The notes beneath the pieces are model-generated. The model saw only the letters and a program-made list of their open reading frames with translations. It was not told the DNA's origin and ran no database searches. This document shows, piece by piece, positions 23,249-30,848 of a DNA stretch of 64,000 nucleotides. Numbering within the stretch: the first letter of the stretch is position 1; each line of letters starts with the position of its first letter. The stretch spans positions 62,001 to 126,000 of the forward strand of contig NZ_SUPW01000004.1 of NCBI RefSeq assembly GCF_013337285.1. The letters run 5' to 3'. This DNA comes from Agrobacterium tumefaciens (GTDB taxonomy: Bacteria; Pseudomonadota; Alphaproteobacteria; Rhizobiales; Rhizobiaceae). The translations under genes and the position numbers were made by a program.

Positions 23249-23271
23249 ATTGCGCGCGGCCGATTTTAATC

Positions 23272-23299
23272 TTGACTCGACCCATCATGAAATATTATG
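23272..23299 (+). promoter_or_regulatory. Candidate promoter of the GOGAT-like gene
   Basis: TTGACT (23272-23277), 16 nt, ATTATG (23294-23299), about 280 bp before the GOGAT-like start. The spacer from 23249 to 23580 otherwise holds no convincing gene; the open frames in it have unusual composition and no clear ribosome site. Confidence 0.35.
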
Positions 23300-23580
23300 T
23301 AAGCAATGCTGACGTAATTCAGTGTGTCTCATTGCCGGAAATGCCGGTCACCAGGGAACGCGATGCGAACGACGACGATCATTATTTGCGAAAAAGCGGC
23401 CATTGCCGCCACGCCGTTTGACGGCCGCAAAACGACCGTTCGCGCCATTAAACGCCGATAGCCAAAAAAAGAGGAGCAGCCAGGTCGCCTGCGGCTCCGC
23501 CCGCAGAGTGCCGGCTGACGCGCCGGGTTTCGGGAAAAGAGGGCGATGCCGCGCGGAATGCGCAACGAGAGGAGAGTGCC

Positions 23581-26500
23581 TTGAGTGTGACGGAGCAAAA
23601 ATTCGGCCTTTACGATGCGGCTTTTGAAAAAAGCAGCTGTGGCGTCGGTTTCATCACCCGCAAGGACGGCGTGCAGACGCATGATGTGCTCAAGCGTGGT
23701 CATGAAGCGCTCTGTGCCGTGCCGCATCGCGGCGGCATGTCGGCGGAAGGTGTGGGGGATGGTGCGGGCGTGTCGCTCGATCTGTCGCTCTCATTTTTCC
23801 GCGAGCTGACGGGGTACGATACGCTGCAGGCCGGCCGCTTCGGCGTCGGCAATTTTTTCCTGCCGCAGAACCCCGCTTTCCACGATGAGGCCGTCGGTAT
23901 CATCGGCAGCGCTCTGAAAGAGCAGGGCTTTTCGGTCCTGCTGGTGCGCGATGTGCCGGTGAATGATACGGCGATCCGTCCCGCCGCTATTCCTTATCAG
24001 TTGCCGATCCGCCAATGGGTCTTTTCGGCACCAGTGGAATGCGCAACCCTTGCAGAATTCGACTGGCGCATCCACAAGGCGCTGCTCGCCATCGAAGCGC
24101 TCGCTTACACCGTGCCGGAGCTTGCCGGTTTTTACCCGCTGTCGCTCAGCGCGCGCACGCAGGTTCTGAAAGGCCGTCTGAACGCCCAGGAGGTCATGCC
24201 CTATTTCTGCGACCTGACCGACCCGCGTCATGAAGTGCATACAATGTATTTCCACACGCGGTTCTCTACCAATACCGATCCGCACCCTTCCATGGCGCAG
24301 CCCTTCCGCCTGATGGCGCATAATGGCGAACTCAACACCGACAAGAAGAACCGATTGTCTGAAGCGGCCGTGGCGCTGGCGAAAAATGCCAGCATCGTCA
24401 GGCCCAAGGGCCAGTCGGATAGCTGCCGTCTGGACCAGACATTGCAGGCGCGGGTGATGGAGGATGGTCTTGACCTCGTGACCGCCGTGGTCTCGATGAT
24501 GCCGCCGGCCTGGGAAAATGACGACACGCTGTCGCCGGACGTCAAGGCGATGCTGGAATATTTCTCGCTCTATGAGGAAAAGAACGACGGCCCGGCCGCG
24601 CTGATCTTCGGCAACGGCAGCATCATCGGCGCGCGTCTCGATCGCCTCGGCCTGCGCCCGCTGCGCACCGTCGAGACGGAAGAGTATCTCTGTGTCATGT
24701 CTGAGGCCGGGCAGATCGCCTTTCCGGCTGAAAGCGTCATCCGCCGTGGTCGTATCGAGGCCGGCGGGATGCTTTATTACGACCACGCCGAACGTCGCGC
24801 CTTTTCCACCGTCGAGGCGCTGGAGCTTCTGGCGTCGCGGCGGGACTATTCGTCGCTGCTATCTGAAGCGCGCGTGATGCTTGGCGATCTGCCGGAGGTG
24901 CCCGCCGACAAGCAGGGCTCACCACTTCGCTACAATGGCGATCTGGAACGACATCAGCGTTATGTCGCCTATTCGCACAATCAGGAGAGCTTCAAGTTCC
25001 TGATGGATCCGATGCTGGCATCCGGCGCGGAAAAGATTTCGGCGATGGGTTACGGCAATGCCATCAATGCGCTTTCCGATCAGGAAGGTGGCGTCGCGAA
25101 GTATTTCTCGCAACGTTTCGCACAGGTCACCAATCCGCCGCTCGACAGCATCCGCGAGGCTGACGGCATGACGCTGCGTGTGGCCCTCGGCGCGAAGCCG
25201 AACAGCGGCGCGGCCAAGGCCCGCCAGATCGTCGTGCGGTCCCCGATCCTCACCCACCTCGATATGCTGCGCCTTCGCGAACAGCCCGAGACACCCGTTC
25301 TTCGTTTCGAGATGCTCTATACGCCGGTCTTCGATGCACCGGACGCCAATGAAGCGGCCTTGCGGCAGGCAATAGATGGCGTCTGCGACAAGGTTGCAGC
25401 TTTCGCAGCTGAGGAGGGCGGCATTGCCGTCATCACCGACCGCCATGTTTCGGCAAGCCGCGCCGCTCTGCCGATGATCATGGTCGTTTCCGCCATCAAC
25501 CAGCGGCTGATCGAGGAAGGTCTGCGACTGCGCGTGTCCCTGATCGTCGAAAGCGGGCAGTTCTCCTCCTCGCATCACATCGCGGCAGGCCTCGGTTTTG
25601 GTGCTTCGGCTGTCTATCCGCTCGGCGTGCAATTCCGTGCAGAGGAGAAATTCGGCGCCGATGCCGACAAGGCGTTTAAGCGTTTCGCCAAGGCGGCTGA
25701 AAAGTCGCTGATGAAGACCATGGGCAAGGTGGGCCTGTGCACCGCGGAAAGTTATATCGGCGGCGAATTCTTCGAGCCGAACTTCCTCGATACCAGCGAT
25801 CCGGTGCTGAACCGTTATTTCCCGAATGTGAAAACGCCGGTCGGCGGCGTCAACTTCGCCGTCATCGCACAGGCGGTGGCCGACTGGCATCGCAAGGCGC
25901 TGTCGGTGAAGGGTGAAAACGACATTCCGCTGCTCGGTCTCTTCAAGGAGCGCGCCGAAGGTGCTGGCCATTCCTATGGCACGACGGCCGTTCGCGGCTT
26001 CGTTGATATGACCGAGGAAAAGATCGCTTTTGACAAGGGAACCGAAAACGAGGAGGCGCTGCGCCTCCTGCCGCTCAACCGGCTGGAAGATGCCTTCGGG
26101 CTTACCGATTCTGCCTATTATCACAACAGCTTCGACCGGCTGACCCCGGAGGCGATCGATAAATTCGAGGTCACGCCCGGCTACCGCGCCTTCGCCCGCA
26201 TGATGGCGGAAGAACGGGCGCGCCGCCCCGCCGCCCTGCGCGATGTTCTAGAACTGCCGGCCGATGTGACCTTTGCCGGTTCGGCCGAAGAATTCCGCCG
26301 GGAAATGGGCCGTTTTTCCAGGCATGGCAATAACAGCTTCATGGTGCGCGGATTGCGCTGCGAAGAGGCGGGCGACGGCTCGTTCCGGGTGCAGCTGACC
26401 GGCCCGCACGGTCATGAACTTGCCCGCCTCGCCGCACTAGGCCAGTCGCTGCTCGACCGCTTCGGTGGTGATATCCCGGGCCATTGGCTGGAAGGCGGCG

Positions 26501-29085
26501 CGCTGCTGGTTCAGACGCAGGGTGAGGCATTCGCCTATCTGTCGCTGATGCGCACCGCACCGGACAGCATTCCGCTTGATGCCGTTCAAAAGGCAAGCGA
26601 GATCACCAAGACGCTGGCATCGGGCGCAATGAGCCATGGCGCACTGGTCGCTGCCGCCCATGAGGCGGTGGCCCACGGGACCAACATGGTCGGCGGCATG
26701 TCGAATTCGGGCGAGGGCGGCGAGCATATTTCCCGTTACGGCACCATCCGCGCCTCGCGCATCAAGCAATTCGCCTCCGGCCGCTTCGGTGTCTGGGCCG
26801 GGTATCTTGCCGATCCGATGCTGGAAGAAATCGAGATCAAGATCGGCCAGGGCGCAAAGCCGGGCGAGGGCGGGCAATTGCCGTCTCCCAAGGTGACGGT
26901 GGAAATTGCGGCGGCACGCGGCGGCACGCCGGGCGTCGAGTTGGTCTCACCGCCACCTCATCACGATACCTATTCGATCGAGGATCTGGCCCAGCTTATC
27001 CATGATGCCAAGGCGGCGCGGGTGCGCGTCATCGTCAAGCTGGTCTCGTCGGAAGGCATAGGCACGATTGCGGTTGGCGTCGCCAAGGCGGGGGCAGATG
27101 TCATCAACGTCGCCGGTAATACCGGCGGCACCGGTGCCGCAGCCGTCACCAGCCTCAAATATACCGGCCGCGCTGCGGAAATCGGCATCGCAGAGGTGCA
27201 TCAGGCGCTCTGCGCCACCGGCCTGCGCGCCAAAGTGCTGTTGCGCTGCTCCGGCGCGCACCAGACGGCAAGCGACGTGGTGAAATCAGCGCTTCTCGGC
27301 GGTGACAGTTTCGAATTCGGCACGACGGCGCTGATGATGCTGAAATGCGTCATGGCGAAGAATTGCAACATCAAATGCCCGGCCGGTCTCACCACCAATC
27401 AGGAAGCCTTCAACGGCGATCCGCGCGCTCTGGCGCAATACCTCATGAACATCGCCCATGAAACGCGCGAGATTCTGGCAGGGCTTGGGGTCGCTTCGCT
27501 GCGGGAAGCGCGGGGCCGTTCCGATCTTCTTCACCTCCTCGATCATCCGGCGAGCGTCGGCCAGCTTGACCTGCGTGCAATGCTTGCCGTGGTCGAAGAG
27601 GTGAAGATCGACAGCCCGGTCTATATGGAAAAGGACTTCGCGCTGGACGATGCCTTCATCGATCTCGTGCGTTCGGCTCTGGTCGATAGCCGCCGCGAGA
27701 ACATCGAGCTTGGCGGCAATCGTTTCCTCAACAATTGCAACAAGAGCGTCGGCGGTCAGCTTGCCGTCGATATCGAACGCATGTTGAACCACGAGCTTTC
27801 CGACGAGCAGCTGGATGCGCTTCCGGCTGTGAAGCGCGATGCGCGTGGTCGCCGGTTCCTGGAGGCGGGTTCGGTGCGCATCGATACATCAGGCTCCGCC
27901 GGACAGTCCTTCGGCGCTTTCTGCAATGACGGCATGGTTATGGTCCATACCGGCACCTGCAATGATGGCGTCGGCAAAAGTGCCTGCGGCGGCACCATCG
28001 TCGTGCGCTCGCCCGGCGGCGGCTCGCAAGAGGCTGGCGGCAATGTGCTGGTCGGTAATTTCGCGCTGTTCGGCGCAACCGGCGGCCGCAGCTTTGTAGA
28101 AGGGCAGGCGGGTGACCGTTTTGCCGTGCGTAACTCCGGTGCGACCGCCGTGGTCGAAGGTGTGGGCGATTTCGCCTGCGAATACATGACCAACGGCGCG
28201 GTTCTCAACCTCGGCAGTTTCGGCAAGGGGTTCGGCAACGGCATGAGCGGCGGCTTCGTTTATCAGTACGATCCCTATGGCGATCTGCCGAAGAAGGTCA
28301 GCCACGATTCCATCCTGCTCGGCTCAATCACCGGTGAAGATGAACAGGCAGCGATCCACAATCTGGCCGTTCACCAGCTTCTGACCTTGCATGTCGCGGA
28401 AACCGGCTCGGCCAAGGCCGCATGGCTGCTGGAAAACTGGGAGAGCGAAAAGCATAATTTCGTCTACGGCATGCCGCGCGCTTTGCTGCTTTATCAGGAC
28501 AGCGACGAAATTCTGAAAGCCAAGCCCCGCAAGGAACTGCTGGAGGAACTGGCCTCTGCGCTTGCCGCCCATCAACTGCGCAAGTTCAAGCTCGCCTATC
28601 GCGACCGCAAGGCCGTGTTGAACGGAACGGTGCCGGGTCATAGTGAGACCGACACGGAAGACATGTATGCGCTCATCAACAATTACACAGTGTTGAGCAT
28701 GGCGCAGACCATCGCCCTGCAACGGCTGCCGATGGCATCCGGCCCCTCTGATCCGGCAGTAGAAAAAGCCGTGCGCAATCTCATCCTCACGGAAGATTAC
28801 GCGCTGATGCAGCGGCTGCTGAAATATGCCCGCGAGGCGCTTTCCGACCACAGTGACGAACAGCTTGCGGTGATGATCGCCGCCAAGCGGCTCGATGATT
28901 ATAAGCAGGCGCTGGCGCGCCGGAACATCTGGTCGGTGGACAGCCCCGGCACCTATGGCTGGATCATTCAGCAGAACCGCAAAAACATCGAGAAGATCGG
29001 CCGACTGCCGGGCTTCGAGGAGCTTTTCGCCGCCCGCGCCATTCCGGACCTCGCCACCGCATCCAGCCAGAACAGGGCAGCATGA
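23581..29085 (+). CDS. Divergent glutamate-synthase-like large subunit (1834 aa)
   Basis: Built like a GOGAT large subunit but about 300 residues longer than the usual GltB and clearly divergent. Order: class II glutaminase domain with nucleophile Cys20 (SSCGVGFI) and RFSTNTDPHPSMAQPFR; a central domain; an insert of roughly 90 residues near 920-1010; the FMN barrel with GMSNSGEGGEHISRYG and EGGQLPSPKV; the GXGXG beta-helix from about 1437; a C-terminal tail of about 180 residues. The Fe-S cysteines are 1256, 1262 and 1266, spaced C-x5-C-x3-C instead of C-x5-C-x4-C, and usual barrel motifs are altered. TTG at 23581 follows GAGAGGAG by 6 nt. Overlaps a CysJ-like reductase gene; no gltD is nearby. 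Reaction uncertain. Confidence 0.85.
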   Translation: MSVTEQKFGLYDAAFEKSSCGVGFITRKDGVQTHDVLKRGHEALCAVPHRGGMSAEGVGDGAGVSLDLSLSFFRELTGYDTLQAGRFGVGNFFLPQNPAFHDEAVGIIGSALKEQGFSVLLVRDVPVNDTAIRPAAIPYQLPIRQWVFSAPVECATLAEFDWRIHKALLAIEALAYTVPELAGFYPLSLSARTQVLKGRLNAQEVMPYFCDLTDPRHEVHTMYFHTRFSTNTDPHPSMAQPFRLMAHNGELNTDKKNRLSEAAVALAKNASIVRPKGQSDSCRLDQTLQARVMEDGLDLVTAVVSMMPPAWENDDTLSPDVKAMLEYFSLYEEKNDGPAALIFGNGSIIGARLDRLGLRPLRTVETEEYLCVMSEAGQIAFPAESVIRRGRIEAGGMLYYDHAERRAFSTVEALELLASRRDYSSLLSEARVMLGDLPEVPADKQGSPLRYNGDLERHQRYVAYSHNQESFKFLMDPMLASGAEKISAMGYGNAINALSDQEGGVAKYFSQRFAQVTNPPLDSIREADGMTLRVALGAKPNSGAAKARQIVVRSPILTHLDMLRLREQPETPVLRFEMLYTPVFDAPDANEAALRQAIDGVCDKVAAFAAEEGGIAVITDRHVSASRAALPMIMVVSAINQRLIEEGLRLRVSLIVESGQFSSSHHIAAGLGFGASAVYPLGVQFRAEEKFGADADKAFKRFAKAAEKSLMKTMGKVGLCTAESYIGGEFFEPNFLDTSDPVLNRYFPNVKTPVGGVNFAVIAQAVADWHRKALSVKGENDIPLLGLFKERAEGAGHSYGTTAVRGFVDMTEEKIAFDKGTENEEALRLLPLNRLEDAFGLTDSAYYHNSFDRLTPEAIDKFEVTPGYRAFARMMAEERARRPAALRDVLELPADVTFAGSAEEFRREMGRFSRHGNNSFMVRGLRCEEAGDGSFRVQLTGPHGHELARLAALGQSLLDRFGGDIPGHWLEGGALLVQTQGEAFAYLSLMRTAPDSIPLDAVQKASEITKTLASGAMSHGALVAAAHEAVAHGTNMVGGMSNSGEGGEHISRYGTIRASRIKQFASGRFGVWAGYLADPMLEEIEIKIGQGAKPGEGGQLPSPKVTVEIAAARGGTPGVELVSPPPHHDTYSIEDLAQLIHDAKAARVRVIVKLVSSEGIGTIAVGVAKAGADVINVAGNTGGTGAAAVTSLKYTGRAAEIGIAEVHQALCATGLRAKVLLRCSGAHQTASDVVKSALLGGDSFEFGTTALMMLKCVMAKNCNIKCPAGLTTNQEAFNGDPRALAQYLMNIAHETREILAGLGVASLREARGRSDLLHLLDHPASVGQLDLRAMLAVVEEVKIDSPVYMEKDFALDDAFIDLVRSALVDSRRENIELGGNRFLNNCNKSVGGQLAVDIERMLNHELSDEQLDALPAVKRDARGRRFLEAGSVRIDTSGSAGQSFGAFCNDGMVMVHTGTCNDGVGKSACGGTIVVRSPGGGSQEAGGNVLVGNFALFGATGGRSFVEGQAGDRFAVRNSGATAVVEGVGDFACEYMTNGAVLNLGSFGKGFGNGMSGGFVYQYDPYGDLPKKVSHDSILLGSITGEDEQAAIHNLAVHQLLTLHVAETGSAKAAWLLENWESEKHNFVYGMPRALLLYQDSDEILKAKPRKELLEELASALAAHQLRKFKLAYRDRKAVLNGTVPGHSETDTEDMYALINNYTVLSMAQTIALQRLPMASGPSDPAVEKAVRNLILTEDYALMQRLLKYAREALSDHSDEQLAVMIAAKRLDDYKQALARRNIWSVDSPGTYGWIIQQNRKNIEKIGRLPGFEELFAARAIPDLATASSQNRAA

Positions 29086-30848
29086 TGAAGATACCTTACA
29101 TTCCACAGGATGCGCCCTTCAATGGCGACCAGCGCGTCTGGCTCGCCGGCTTTTTGGCCGGGCTCCACTCCCGCGCGGCCATGGGTCTGGAGACATCGGT
29201 GGCCGCTGCTACCCCCAAAGCGGCGGCCAGCGTGCTGAACATCCTTGTCGGCACTCAAACCGGCAATGCCGAGGCCTTGGCGATGGATATCGCCGCCGCC
29301 GCTCGTGTGCAGGCAATGCAGCCCGTTGTAACGGCGCTGGACGACGTTTCCATGGATAGTCTCAGCTCCATGAAGCGCGTCATCGTCGTCACATCGACCT
29401 ATGGCGAAGGCGAGATGCCGGATAATGCCCAGCTGTTCTGGGAGGCGCTTGCCACTGACGCCGCGCCGCGTCTCGACGAGATGAATTTCGCTGTTCTTGC
29501 GCTCGGTGATACCGGTTATGACGGCTTCTGCCAGGCGGGCAAGCTCATCGATACGCGTTTCGAGCAACTCGGCGGCAGGCGCATGAAGACGCGTATCGAT
29601 TGCGATATCGATTTTGAGGATGCGTCCGCCGCCTGGATCGGCGAGACGCTGCCGCTTGCCCTCGCCATCGGTGGGGACAATGCAGCCATTGCCGCGCCTG
29701 TGGTCGCCGAGCCGCCCGCGCGGGCAAAACAGGGCTGGGGTCGCAAGAATCCCTATTCGTCACGGGTGAGCGTCAATCGCCTTCTTTCCAGCCCGGCCTC
29801 GTCCAAGGAGATTCGCCACTACGAATTCGAACTTGGGGCAAGCGGCCTCGACTATGAGGCCGGTGACGCCCTTGGTGTCGTCCCTCTTAACGACCCAAAA
29901 CTGGTCGGCGCTCTGCTCGAATGCTTTGGAGCGAGTGCGGATGGCGAGGTCGCCGGGCTCGACCGGCCGATCGGCGATGCACTTCTGAACATGTTCGAGA
30001 TATCGACGCCTTCGCGTGAGTTGGTGGCCGAAATCGGCAAGCGTGCAGGACATGACGAGTTGAGCTATATCCTTGCCAATGGAGACAGGGAGCAGCTTGC
30101 CGCCTTTCTCTGGAGCAAGGACATTCTCGACCTGCTCAATCTCGGCGGAAAACCCGTATTCAACATCGCCGAATTCGTGACCTTCCTGAAGCCGCTGCAG
30201 CATCGCGCTTACTCCATCTCATCCAGCCCGCTGGTCGCGGAAAACAGCGTTCATCTGACGATCGCCAGCGTGCGTTATCGTGCCGAGGGCCGCGAGCGTG
30301 GTGGCGTATGCTCCACCTATCTGGCGGACCGGGTGGAGGCGGGTCAGAATGCCGGTATTTTCGTTTCACCCAACAAGGCGTTTCGTGTACCGCAGGACAA
30401 TGATGCACCTGCTATCATGGTTGGACCGGGCACCGGCATCGCACCTTTCCGGGCATTCTTGCAGGAACGGCAGGCAAGGGGTGCTGCCGGCAAGAACTGG
30501 CTGTTTTTCGGCGATCAGCACCGGCAGTCGGATTTCATCTACGAAAGCGAGCTTGGTGAAATGAGCCGTGATGGCGTGCTGACGCGCCTTGATCTCGCTT
30601 TTTCGCGGGATCAGGCAGAAAAAATCTATGTCCAGACCCGCATGCGGCAGAATGGCAAGGCGCTTTATCAATGGCTTGAAGAGGGCGGCTATTTCTACGT
30701 CTGCGGTGATGCGACCCGCATGGCGAAGGATGTCGATGACGCCCTGCATCAGATTGTCGCCGACGAAGCCGGCATTTCTGCCGAAGCGGCAGCCGATTAT
30801 GTGAACCGCCTGAAGCGCGAAAAGCGTTATCTGCGTGACGTTTATTAG
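29082..30848 (+). CDS. CysJ-like NADPH diflavin reductase
   Basis: A 588-aa diflavin reductase. A short N-terminal segment (IPYIPQDAPFNGDQRVWLAG) precedes a flavodoxin FMN domain (ILVGTQTGNAEALA at about 53, STYGEGEMPDNAQ near 105). The FAD domain (HRAYSISSSP near 375, GVCSTYL near 408) and NADPH domain (GPGTGIAPFRAFLQERQARG near 449, YVCGDATRMAKDVDDAL near 540) follow, with the end KRYLRDVY. This is the layout of sulfite reductase alpha subunit, yet no CysI or other siroheme gene lies nearby. It overlaps the GOGAT-like gene by 4 bp, so I infer it feeds electrons to that protein. ATG at 29082 or 29085. Confidence 0.9.
   Translation: MMKIPYIPQDAPFNGDQRVWLAGFLAGLHSRAAMGLETSVAAATPKAAASVLNILVGTQTGNAEALAMDIAAAARVQAMQPVVTALDDVSMDSLSSMKRVIVVTSTYGEGEMPDNAQLFWEALATDAAPRLDEMNFAVLALGDTGYDGFCQAGKLIDTRFEQLGGRRMKTRIDCDIDFEDASAAWIGETLPLALAIGGDNAAIAAPVVAEPPARAKQGWGRKNPYSSRVSVNRLLSSPASSKEIRHYEFELGASGLDYEAGDALGVVPLNDPKLVGALLECFGASADGEVAGLDRPIGDALLNMFEISTPSRELVAEIGKRAGHDELSYILANGDREQLAAFLWSKDILDLLNLGGKPVFNIAEFVTFLKPLQHRAYSISSSPLVAENSVHLTIASVRYRAEGRERGGVCSTYLADRVEAGQNAGIFVSPNKAFRVPQDNDAPAIMVGPGTGIAPFRAFLQERQARGAAGKNWLFFGDQHRQSDFIYESELGEMSRDGVLTRLDLAFSRDQAEKIYVQTRMRQNGKALYQWLEEGGYFYVCGDATRMAKDVDDALHQIVADEAGISAEAAADYVNRLKREKRYLRDVY

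What the first reader, a model, noticed from the sequence alone, without database searches (positions are those of the whole stretch)
23581..30848. Divergent GOGAT-like protein paired with a CysJ-like diflavin reductase
A 1834-aa protein with all GltB domains, plus an insert and a C-terminal tail, is translationally coupled (4-bp overlap) to a NADPH diflavin reductase of the CysJ type. No GltD and no siroheme sulfite reductase are nearby. The simplest reading is that the reductase replaces GltD as the electron donor, so NADPH electrons would run through FAD and FMN to the GOGAT-like Fe-S/FMN core. Known GOGATs use GltD or ferredoxin. The product may not be glutamate.
Basis: partly seen in the sequence, partly recalled or inferred. 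Interest (0 to 1): 0.7.

Follow-up and report, generated by a model that had tools for sequence, protein, structure and literature searches.

The report
Glutamate synthase with flavin-only electron donor
Two neighbouring genes appear to form a separate kind of bacterial glutamate synthase, fed by a flavin-only reductase in place of the usual iron-sulfur partner, and signs around the genes suggest that many bacteria use it when iron is scarce.

Summary
A 1834-aa GOGAT-like gene overlaps a 588-aa CysJ-like diflavin reductase gene by 4 bp; no GltD or sulfite reductase was found in the window.

All 80 best relatives kept (of 531; Alpha-, Beta-, Gammaproteobacteria, Actinobacteria) have the reductase next door. 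The GOGATs form a group apart from ordinary GltB. In 22 of 80 genomes the pair is the only full GOGAT, including all 16 Enterobacterales. In a SAR92 family and in Pantoea/Erwinia it sits at the site where relatives keep gltBD. In Pantoea ananatis, whose GOGAT is of this type, a gltB knockout is reported to need glutamate.

Where it coexists with gltBD, many loci carry iron signals: IdeR-like boxes (12 of 14 actinobacterial loci; 4 of 1142 control windows), RirA-type boxes (22 of 29 Rhizobiaceae-type loci), HemS/ChuX-like genes downstream (18 of 58). Best reading: a diflavin-dependent, iron-sparing glutamate synthase spread by horizontal transfer. Electron path and low-iron induction are inferred. 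Ten literature searches found no description of the pair.

The parts
23271..23287 (+). Promoter element CTTGACTCGACCCATCA holding TGA-N9-TCA at 23273-23287 (IRO box form, RirA type)
   Evidence: IRO form from PMC6386902 passages
23299..23313 (+). Second conserved promoter element GTAAGCAATGCTGAC (function unknown)
23581..29085 (+). GOGAT-like large subunit, 1834 aa (P0001), TTG start
23638..24855 (+). Glutaminase (GATase_2) domain with nucleophile Cys20
24958..25776 (+). Glu_syn_central domain
26134..26586 (+). Stretch of the clade-specific insert folded alone (residues 852-1002; its end overlaps the next domain), alpha/beta in the model
26560..27492 (+). FMN/synthase (Glu_synthase) domain
27346..27378 (+). 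Three conserved cysteines aligned with the 3Fe-4S ligands of GltB (Cys1256, 1262, 1266; spacing C-x5-C-x3-C)
27847..28347 (+). GXGXG domain
28498..29082 (+). Clade-specific C-terminal tail (about residues 1640-1834), helical in the model
29082..30848 (+). CysJ-like NADPH diflavin (FMN/FAD) reductase, 588 aa (P0002), proposed electron donor

Best explanation
The two genes encode a complete glutamate synthase of a separate type. The large subunit works like GltB: glutaminase domain, ammonia transfer, FMN synthase site with one 3Fe-4S cluster, making glutamate from glutamine and 2-oxoglutarate. Its electrons come from NADPH through FAD and FMN of the CysJ-like reductase instead of through the FAD and two 4Fe-4S clusters of GltD. 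Shown by comparison: the fixed pairing, the conserved motifs, the separate group, the replacement of gltBD at its site, and the lack of a second GOGAT (and, where tested, of GltD) in some hosts. Shown by others, as cited in PMC12364357: a gltB knockout makes P. ananatis a glutamate auxotroph. Inferred: the protein complex and the electron path. Inferred with about 0.6 confidence: where a normal gltBD is also present, as in this Agrobacterium-like genome, the pair is an iron-sparing isozyme switched on when iron is low (IdeR in Actinobacteria, probably RirA in Rhizobiaceae). In Pantoea/Erwinia-type bacteria and some SAR92 it has become the housekeeping enzyme.
For: Reductase directly downstream in 80 of 80 loci kept, 4 of 4 further loci of the SAR92 family and 4 of 4 plasmid loci opened, of 9 found; gap 100 bp or less in 72 of 80, overlap in 24 of 80. 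aroK-aroB-[gltB-gltD]-hemE in 5 of the 6 canonical loci fetched from that family (of 51), against aroK-aroB-[pair]-hemE in 6 of 6 pair loci. In 16 of 16 Enterobacterales loci arcB lies directly upstream, and in 14 of 16 sspB-sspA-rpsI lie downstream; E. coli has gltBD in that arcB-sspB interval. The pair is the only full GOGAT in 22 of 80 genomes (8 of 44; 14 of 36). Surveys: 5 of 61 genomes of the SAR92 family and 2 of 79 of the Pantoea family hold pair-type genes, none of these 7 a canonical one. 8 of 8 sole-pair genomes tested have no GltD over cut-off. Cys nucleophile, oxyanion Asn/Gly, 3 Fe-S Cys and others identical in 81 of 81 pair and 21 of 21 canonical proteins. NADPH, FAD and C-terminal motifs in 84 of 84 reductases, FMN loop in 83 of 84. 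Knockout report (PMC12364357); the P. ananatis LMG 2665 protein is 68% identical to the window's, 31-39% to canonical Agrobacterium GltB, and its genome has no other (G363). Iron: IdeR-like box (13 or more of 19) within 250 bp in 12 of 14 actinobacterial loci against 4 of 1142 control windows; TGA-N9-TCA within 350 bp in 22 of 29 Rhizobiaceae-type loci against 6.3% of shuffles; HemS/ChuX-like gene next in 18 of 80 loci (18 of 58 with another full GOGAT, 0 of 22 sole-pair) and in 2 of 4 plasmid loci; siderophore genes next on a Ketogulonicigenium plasmid.
Against: No biochemistry of the pair was found. 41 of 331 canonical-invariant positions are fixed to another residue, some beside the Fe-S ligands and synthase site, so substrate changes are not excluded. 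The own genome has only one diflavin reductase and a CysI-like gene, so there it could also serve sulfite reduction. Two sole-pair genomes have sub-cut-off GltD-family hits (G041 300.6 bits in a 651-aa frame, G022 165.8 bits in a 598-aa frame; cut-off 447.7), and 14 of the 22 were not tested for GltD. The IRO box is absent at the conserved element in 9 of 29 Rhizobiaceae-type loci, and these loci are related, so 22 of 29 are not independent. The 13-of-19 threshold for IdeR was set after a first look; single-base shuffles reach it in 51 of 4200. Two of 9 canonical actinobacterial gltB genes also have a 13/19 box. Two Rhodococcus loci lack a box. HemS adjacency has no control, and 6 of the 18 best match a version below Pfam's cut-off. 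By eye no Fur-like box stands out in Enterobacterales (best 12 of 19). P. ananatis AJ13355 itself was not examined.
Confidence: 0.82

Rival explanations
1. The large subunit has shifted to another acceptor (an amidotransferase making a product other than glutamate), and the reductase only supplies electrons for that.
For: Long stem of the group; 41 of 331 canonical-invariant positions changed and fixed; insert and tail specific to the group; 58 of 80 hosts keep another full GOGAT as well.
Against: Sole GOGAT in 22 of 80 genomes; found at the gltBD site in two lineages; no GDH-sized ELFV hit in 6 of 6 pair-bearing SAR92-type genomes, though 4 of them show a partial match just over the cut-off; glutamate auxotrophy of the P. 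ananatis gltB knockout (PMC12364357).
Confidence: 0.08
2. The reductase is an ordinary CysJ for sulfite reduction (or shared with it) and its position is incidental.
For: Own genome has one diflavin reductase and a CysI-like protein; the protein passes the NCBIfam model PRK06214 'sulfite reductase subunit alpha'.
Against: 80 of 80 adjacency; below cut-off for both cysJ models; Pantoea, Erwinia, Winslowiella, Enterobacter, SAR92 and a Rhodobacteraceae genome have another CysJ-like gene beside a NIR_SIR gene; one pair genome has no NIR_SIR gene at all (G022, a MAG).
Confidence: 0.05
3. The pair is a GOGAT as described, but it is adapted to oxygen, peroxide or nitric-oxide stress (loss of fragile 4Fe-4S clusters) rather than to iron shortage.
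For: Loss of the two 4Fe-4S clusters of GltD would help against oxidants too (inference). PMC5863699 passages say the RirA cluster also senses O2.
Against: IdeR-like boxes and HemS/ChuX and siderophore neighbours point to iron itself.
Confidence: 0.25
4. GltD of the normal enzyme serves the pair-type GltB, and the reductase does something else.
For: The 12 genomes with a GltD over cut-off all carry the pair as well, the own genome among them.
Against: 6 of 8 sole-pair genomes tested have no GltD-family hit over 44 bits; the other two (G041, G022) have hits below cut-off in frames of 651 and 598 aa; no E. coli-type gltD inside the 6 SAR92-type pair loci.
Confidence: 0.03

Closest known systems
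NADPH-dependent glutamate synthase GltBD (EC 1.4.1.13; PDB 1EA0, 2VDC, 6S6S, 7MFM)
   Same: Large subunit has the same four domains, catalytic residues and three Fe-S cysteines; the genes lie at the same chromosomal site in two lineages.
   Different: GltD is absent beside it, replaced by a CysJ-like diflavin reductase; large subunit about 240-350 aa longer, separate group, just under the PRK11750 cut-off (1038.8 against 1047 bits).
Ferredoxin-dependent glutamate synthase (PDB 1LLW, 1OFD)
   Same: GltB-like catalytic protein without GltD.
   Different: A flavoprotein gene is next door in every locus examined; the best PDB sequence match is an NADPH-type GltB (7MFM). Ferredoxin docking was not examined.
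Assimilatory NADPH sulfite reductase flavoprotein CysJ (PDB 6EFV)
   Same: FMN, FAD and NADPH domains and motifs; best PDB match of P0002.
   Different: Partner is a GOGAT, not CysI; groups apart from the CysJ found beside CysI, with one long-branch non-pair protein inside the pair group.
Flavodoxin-for-ferredoxin iron-sparing swaps (described in PMC9938188 passages)
   Same: A flavin carrier takes the place of an iron-sulfur carrier.
   Different: Here the enzyme is an isozyme with its own large subunit, and the iron link is so far by sequence only.

Membership tests
NADPH-GOGAT (GltBD) | Four GltB domains | tested here: met
NADPH-GOGAT (GltBD) | N-terminal glutaminase Cys and oxyanion residues (roles recalled) | tested here: met
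   81 of 81
NADPH-GOGAT (GltBD) | Three Cys ligands of the 3Fe-4S cluster | tested here: met
   81 of 81; spacing one residue shorter
NADPH-GOGAT (GltBD) | GltD small subunit as genomic partner | tested here: not met
   no GltD over cut-off in 8 of 8 sole-pair genomes tested
NADPH-GOGAT (GltBD) | Groups within ordinary GltB | tested here: not met
   30 pair and 24 canonical proteins on two sides of one branch, SH-aLRT 100, quick method
NADPH-GOGAT (GltBD) | Glutamate formation from glutamine and 2-oxoglutarate | not testable with these tools
   genetic support only: PMC12364357
Fd-GOGAT | Ferredoxin as donor and its docking loop | not tested
   the loop was not examined
CysJ (sulfite reductase flavoprotein) | Diflavin domains and NADPH motif | tested here: met
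CysJ (sulfite reductase flavoprotein) | Curated cysJ model cut-offs (TIGR01931, PRK10953) | tested here: not met
   598.2 against 668.15 and 487.7 against 838 bits; PRK06214 is passed (463.1 against 432)
CysJ (sulfite reductase flavoprotein) | CysI as genomic neighbour | tested here: not met
RirA regulon | IRO box TGA-N9-TCA upstream | tested here: met
   window 23273-23287; 22 of 29 Rhizobiaceae-type loci within 350 bp; binding not tested
IdeR/DtxR regulon (actinobacterial relatives) | Match to the 19-bp box (consensus recalled) | tested here: met
   12 of 14 loci; binding not tested

The most novel reading that the evidence does not exclude
A further class of glutamate synthase: a diflavin-reductase-dependent GOGAT that carries one Fe-S cluster instead of three, moves between phyla as a two-gene unit, serves as the low-iron isozyme under IdeR or RirA in soil bacteria, and has displaced gltBD in Pantoea/Erwinia-type bacteria and part of the marine SAR92 group.
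Probability: 0.58. Interest if true: 0.82.

Novelty: new variant of a known kind. Interest (0 to 1): 0.73.

Why it matters
Glutamate synthase is a main entry of nitrogen into biology and is usually described as either GltD-dependent or ferredoxin-dependent (recalled). A widespread form fed by a P450-reductase-like flavoprotein would add another electron route and correct current names ('glutamate synthase-related protein', 'sulfite reductase subunit alpha'). It also offers an explanation for bacteria that seem to lack GltD or a close GOGAT, including the amino-acid producer P. ananatis.

Tried and rejected
Fur and Irr consensus scans upstream of the pair gave nothing that stood out by eye; no control was run. 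The pattern CTTGACT-N6-ATCA in the own genome gave 66 matches with up to one mismatch (23 for the backwards control) and 3 exact ones. Apart from ours, one exact hit (C1) lies inside an open reading frame and one (C14:174620) between an Rrf2-like regulator and a TrxB-like gene, both named by reading. Of the 63 one-mismatch hits I followed up two, chosen because their letters looked palindromic; both lie upstream of what read as iron ABC transporter operons (not family-tested). This is weak support.

Large NAD-type GDHs were not searched for. TIGR01317 misses some true GltD (over cut-off in 4 of 14 control genomes), so I argue from the size of the hits, not from the cut-off alone. Pair-type and canonical genes in the family surveys were told apart by score and frame length; some canonical frames are short, and the neighbour of the pair-type gene in G318 was not looked at. 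yhcC, which lies between arcB and gltB in E. coli, was not found in the 16 Enterobacterales loci.

Literature: ten searches over the open PMC library found no description of the pair; subscription papers are mostly not held. Hara et al. 2012, the source of the knockout statement, was not held. Of the papers opened I saw passages only.
Full report
Check of the observation. The window lies on contig C14 of a 5.0 Mb genome. Its nearest relatives by this gene are Agrobacterium-type strains (96% identity to A. genomosp. 13, 97% to a strain named Rhizobium rhizogenes). The two ORFs are as described, with a 4-bp overlap. The first has all four GltB domains, the second the FMN, FAD and NADPH domains of a diflavin reductase. 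NCBIfam places the first just under the GltB model PRK11750 (1038.8 against 1047 bits) and the second under both cysJ models but over PRK06214. The genome has a second, canonical gltB with gltD beside it on contig C13, a CysI-like gene and another NIR_SIR gene elsewhere, and no PF02812-type GDH. Neither its own GltD nor that of E. coli finds anything in the window.

Distribution. A scan of GTDB genomes gave 531 relatives; the best 80 were kept, and all 80 have a P0002 homologue directly downstream. They come from Rhizobiaceae and other Alphaproteobacteria, Methylobacillus, Lampropedia, Pantoea/Erwinia and relatives, SAR92, Rhodococcus, Nocardia and mycobacteria. The 451 weaker relatives were not examined. 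The gap is 100 bp or less in 72 of 80 and an overlap in 24 of 80; the eight wider gaps (177-189 bp) are all in Pantoea/Mixta. In the own GTDB family 4 of 151 genomes sampled, the window's own among them, have a match at E 1e-300 or better, so presence is patchy. Nine plasmid records carry it at 60-84% identity; of four opened, one (Ketogulonicigenium) is typed as conjugative. About 70% identity across two phyla, patchy presence and plasmid carriage point to horizontal transfer.

A separate group with an intact active site. A quick tree of 30 pair (of 81) and 24 canonical GOGATs splits them on one branch with SH-aLRT 100 and a long stem. The program warned of long branches among canonical rows; these lie within the canonical side. 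In an alignment of 81 pair and 21 canonical proteins, the nucleophile Cys20, Arg227, Asn248, Gly249, Asp280, Lys1062, Lys1093, Gln1099 and the three Fe-S cysteines are identical in all; their catalytic roles are recalled, not tested. Against this, 41 of 331 canonical-invariant positions are changed and fixed in the pair group. The group also has an insert and a tail, helical in the model, whose role I could not tell. The reductases keep their FMN, FAD and NADPH motifs.

It replaces gltBD at its site. E. coli has gltBD in the interval between arcB-yhcC and sspB-sspA-rpsI, with other genes in between. In 16 of 16 Enterobacterales pair loci arcB lies directly upstream, and in 14 of 16 sspB-sspA-rpsI lie downstream (ArcB and SspB also by Pfam in one). 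In the SAR92 family, canonical loci read aroK-aroB-gltB-gltD-hemE in 5 of 6 fetched (of 51), and pair loci read aroK-aroB-GOGAT-reductase-hemE in 6 of 6. In samples of these two families the two kinds were never found together: 5 of 61 and 2 of 79 genomes hold the pair kind, 51 and 45 the canonical kind, 3 of the 79 only fragments, and 5 and 29 none. Over all 80 pair genomes the pair is the only full GOGAT in 22 (8 of 44, 14 of 36): all 16 Enterobacterales, 2 SAR92-type and 4 alphaproteobacterial genomes; the last six are metagenome assemblies, where absence means less. Of these 22, 8 were tested for GltD: none has a hit over cut-off, 6 have nothing over 44 bits, G041 and G022 have 300.6 and 165.8 bits (GltDs beside canonical gltB score 599-766, or 398 in G043). 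Six of six pair-bearing SAR92-type genomes lack a GDH-sized ELFV hit; two have none and four a partial one of 23.7-25.2 bits, just over the cut-off. Six hosts checked, four of them Enterobacterales, keep a separate CysJ-like gene beside a NIR_SIR gene.

Genetics in print. PMC12364357 (passages) states that P. ananatis AJ13355 has no close homologue of E. coli GOGAT, that its gltB is 64% identical to an Agrobacterium large subunit, and, citing Hara et al. 2012, that a gltB knockout is a glutamate auxotroph. P. ananatis LMG 2665 in my set has only the pair type (G363), 68% identical to the window's protein and 31-39% to canonical Agrobacterium GltB. So the reported gene is almost certainly of this kind. 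The terms sulfite reductase and flavoprotein do not occur in the main text of that paper.

The iron link. In 14 actinobacterial loci, 12 have an IdeR-like box (13 or more of 19) within 250 bp upstream, 6 of them 15 or more; control windows in the same loci gave 4 and 0 of 1142, shuffles 51 and 1 of 4200. The consensus is recalled and the threshold was set after a first look. Canonical gltB genes of such genomes gave 2 of 9, both 13. In 29 Rhizobiaceae-type loci (some named only Rhizobiales), 22 have TGA-N9-TCA within 350 bp (6.3% in shuffles), 20 of them at one conserved element. The window's copy is at 23273-23287. These loci are related, so this is weaker than the IdeR result. A HemS/ChuX-like gene follows the reductase in 18 of 80 loci, all among the 58 genomes that also have another full GOGAT and none among the 22 that do not; 12 of the 18 match best a query over Pfam's HemS cut-off, 6 a Rhodobacterales version below it. 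No control for this adjacency was run. Siderophore uptake genes follow on the Ketogulonicigenium plasmid. GltD carries two 4Fe-4S clusters (recalled) and a diflavin reductase none, so the pair would need 3 instead of 11 irons. Caulobacter lowers gltBD when iron is short (PMC3751524), and so does Bacillus as cited in PMC9938188. I therefore read the pair as an iron-sparing isozyme where both coexist. Induction itself is untested.

Verdict. What it works like: a glutamate synthase. What it is: not a member of GltBD by partner and by tree, and not CysJ by partner. I class it as a new variant of a known kind. My ten literature searches found no description of it.

Noticed in passing
L066:15161-15988, L029:15515-16507, L052:15189-16178: HemS/ChuX-like genes recur directly downstream of the pair in 18 of 80 loci; the Rhodobacterales version is below Pfam's cut-off (19.9 bits). 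They may be a third member of the unit in some lineages.
   Followed up: partly
window 23299-23313: A second conserved promoter element (GTMAGCA..CTGAC form) lies just downstream of the IRO-like element in most of the 29 Rhizobiaceae-type loci; regulator unknown.
   Followed up: no
L089, L090: Two of 9 canonical actinobacterial gltB genes also have a 13/19 IdeR-like box upstream, so ordinary GOGAT may be iron-regulated there too.
   Followed up: no
L135 (G040:C56:290000-293000): A long-branch diflavin reductase about 40 kb from the pair on the same Rhodobacteraceae contig groups inside the pair reductases; perhaps a diverged duplicate.
   Followed up: no
G282, G305, G308: Three genomes of the Pantoea family sample have split or broken GOGAT genes and no pair-type gene.
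   Followed up: no
L139-L142: Public annotation calls the two genes 'glutamate synthase-related protein' (or gltB) and 'sulfite reductase subunit alpha' (or flavoprotein subunit alpha, or cysJ), which hides the pairing.
   Followed up: yes
G000: The own genome has no PF02812-type glutamate dehydrogenase, so glutamate would depend on its two GOGATs unless a GDH of another family is present.
   Followed up: no
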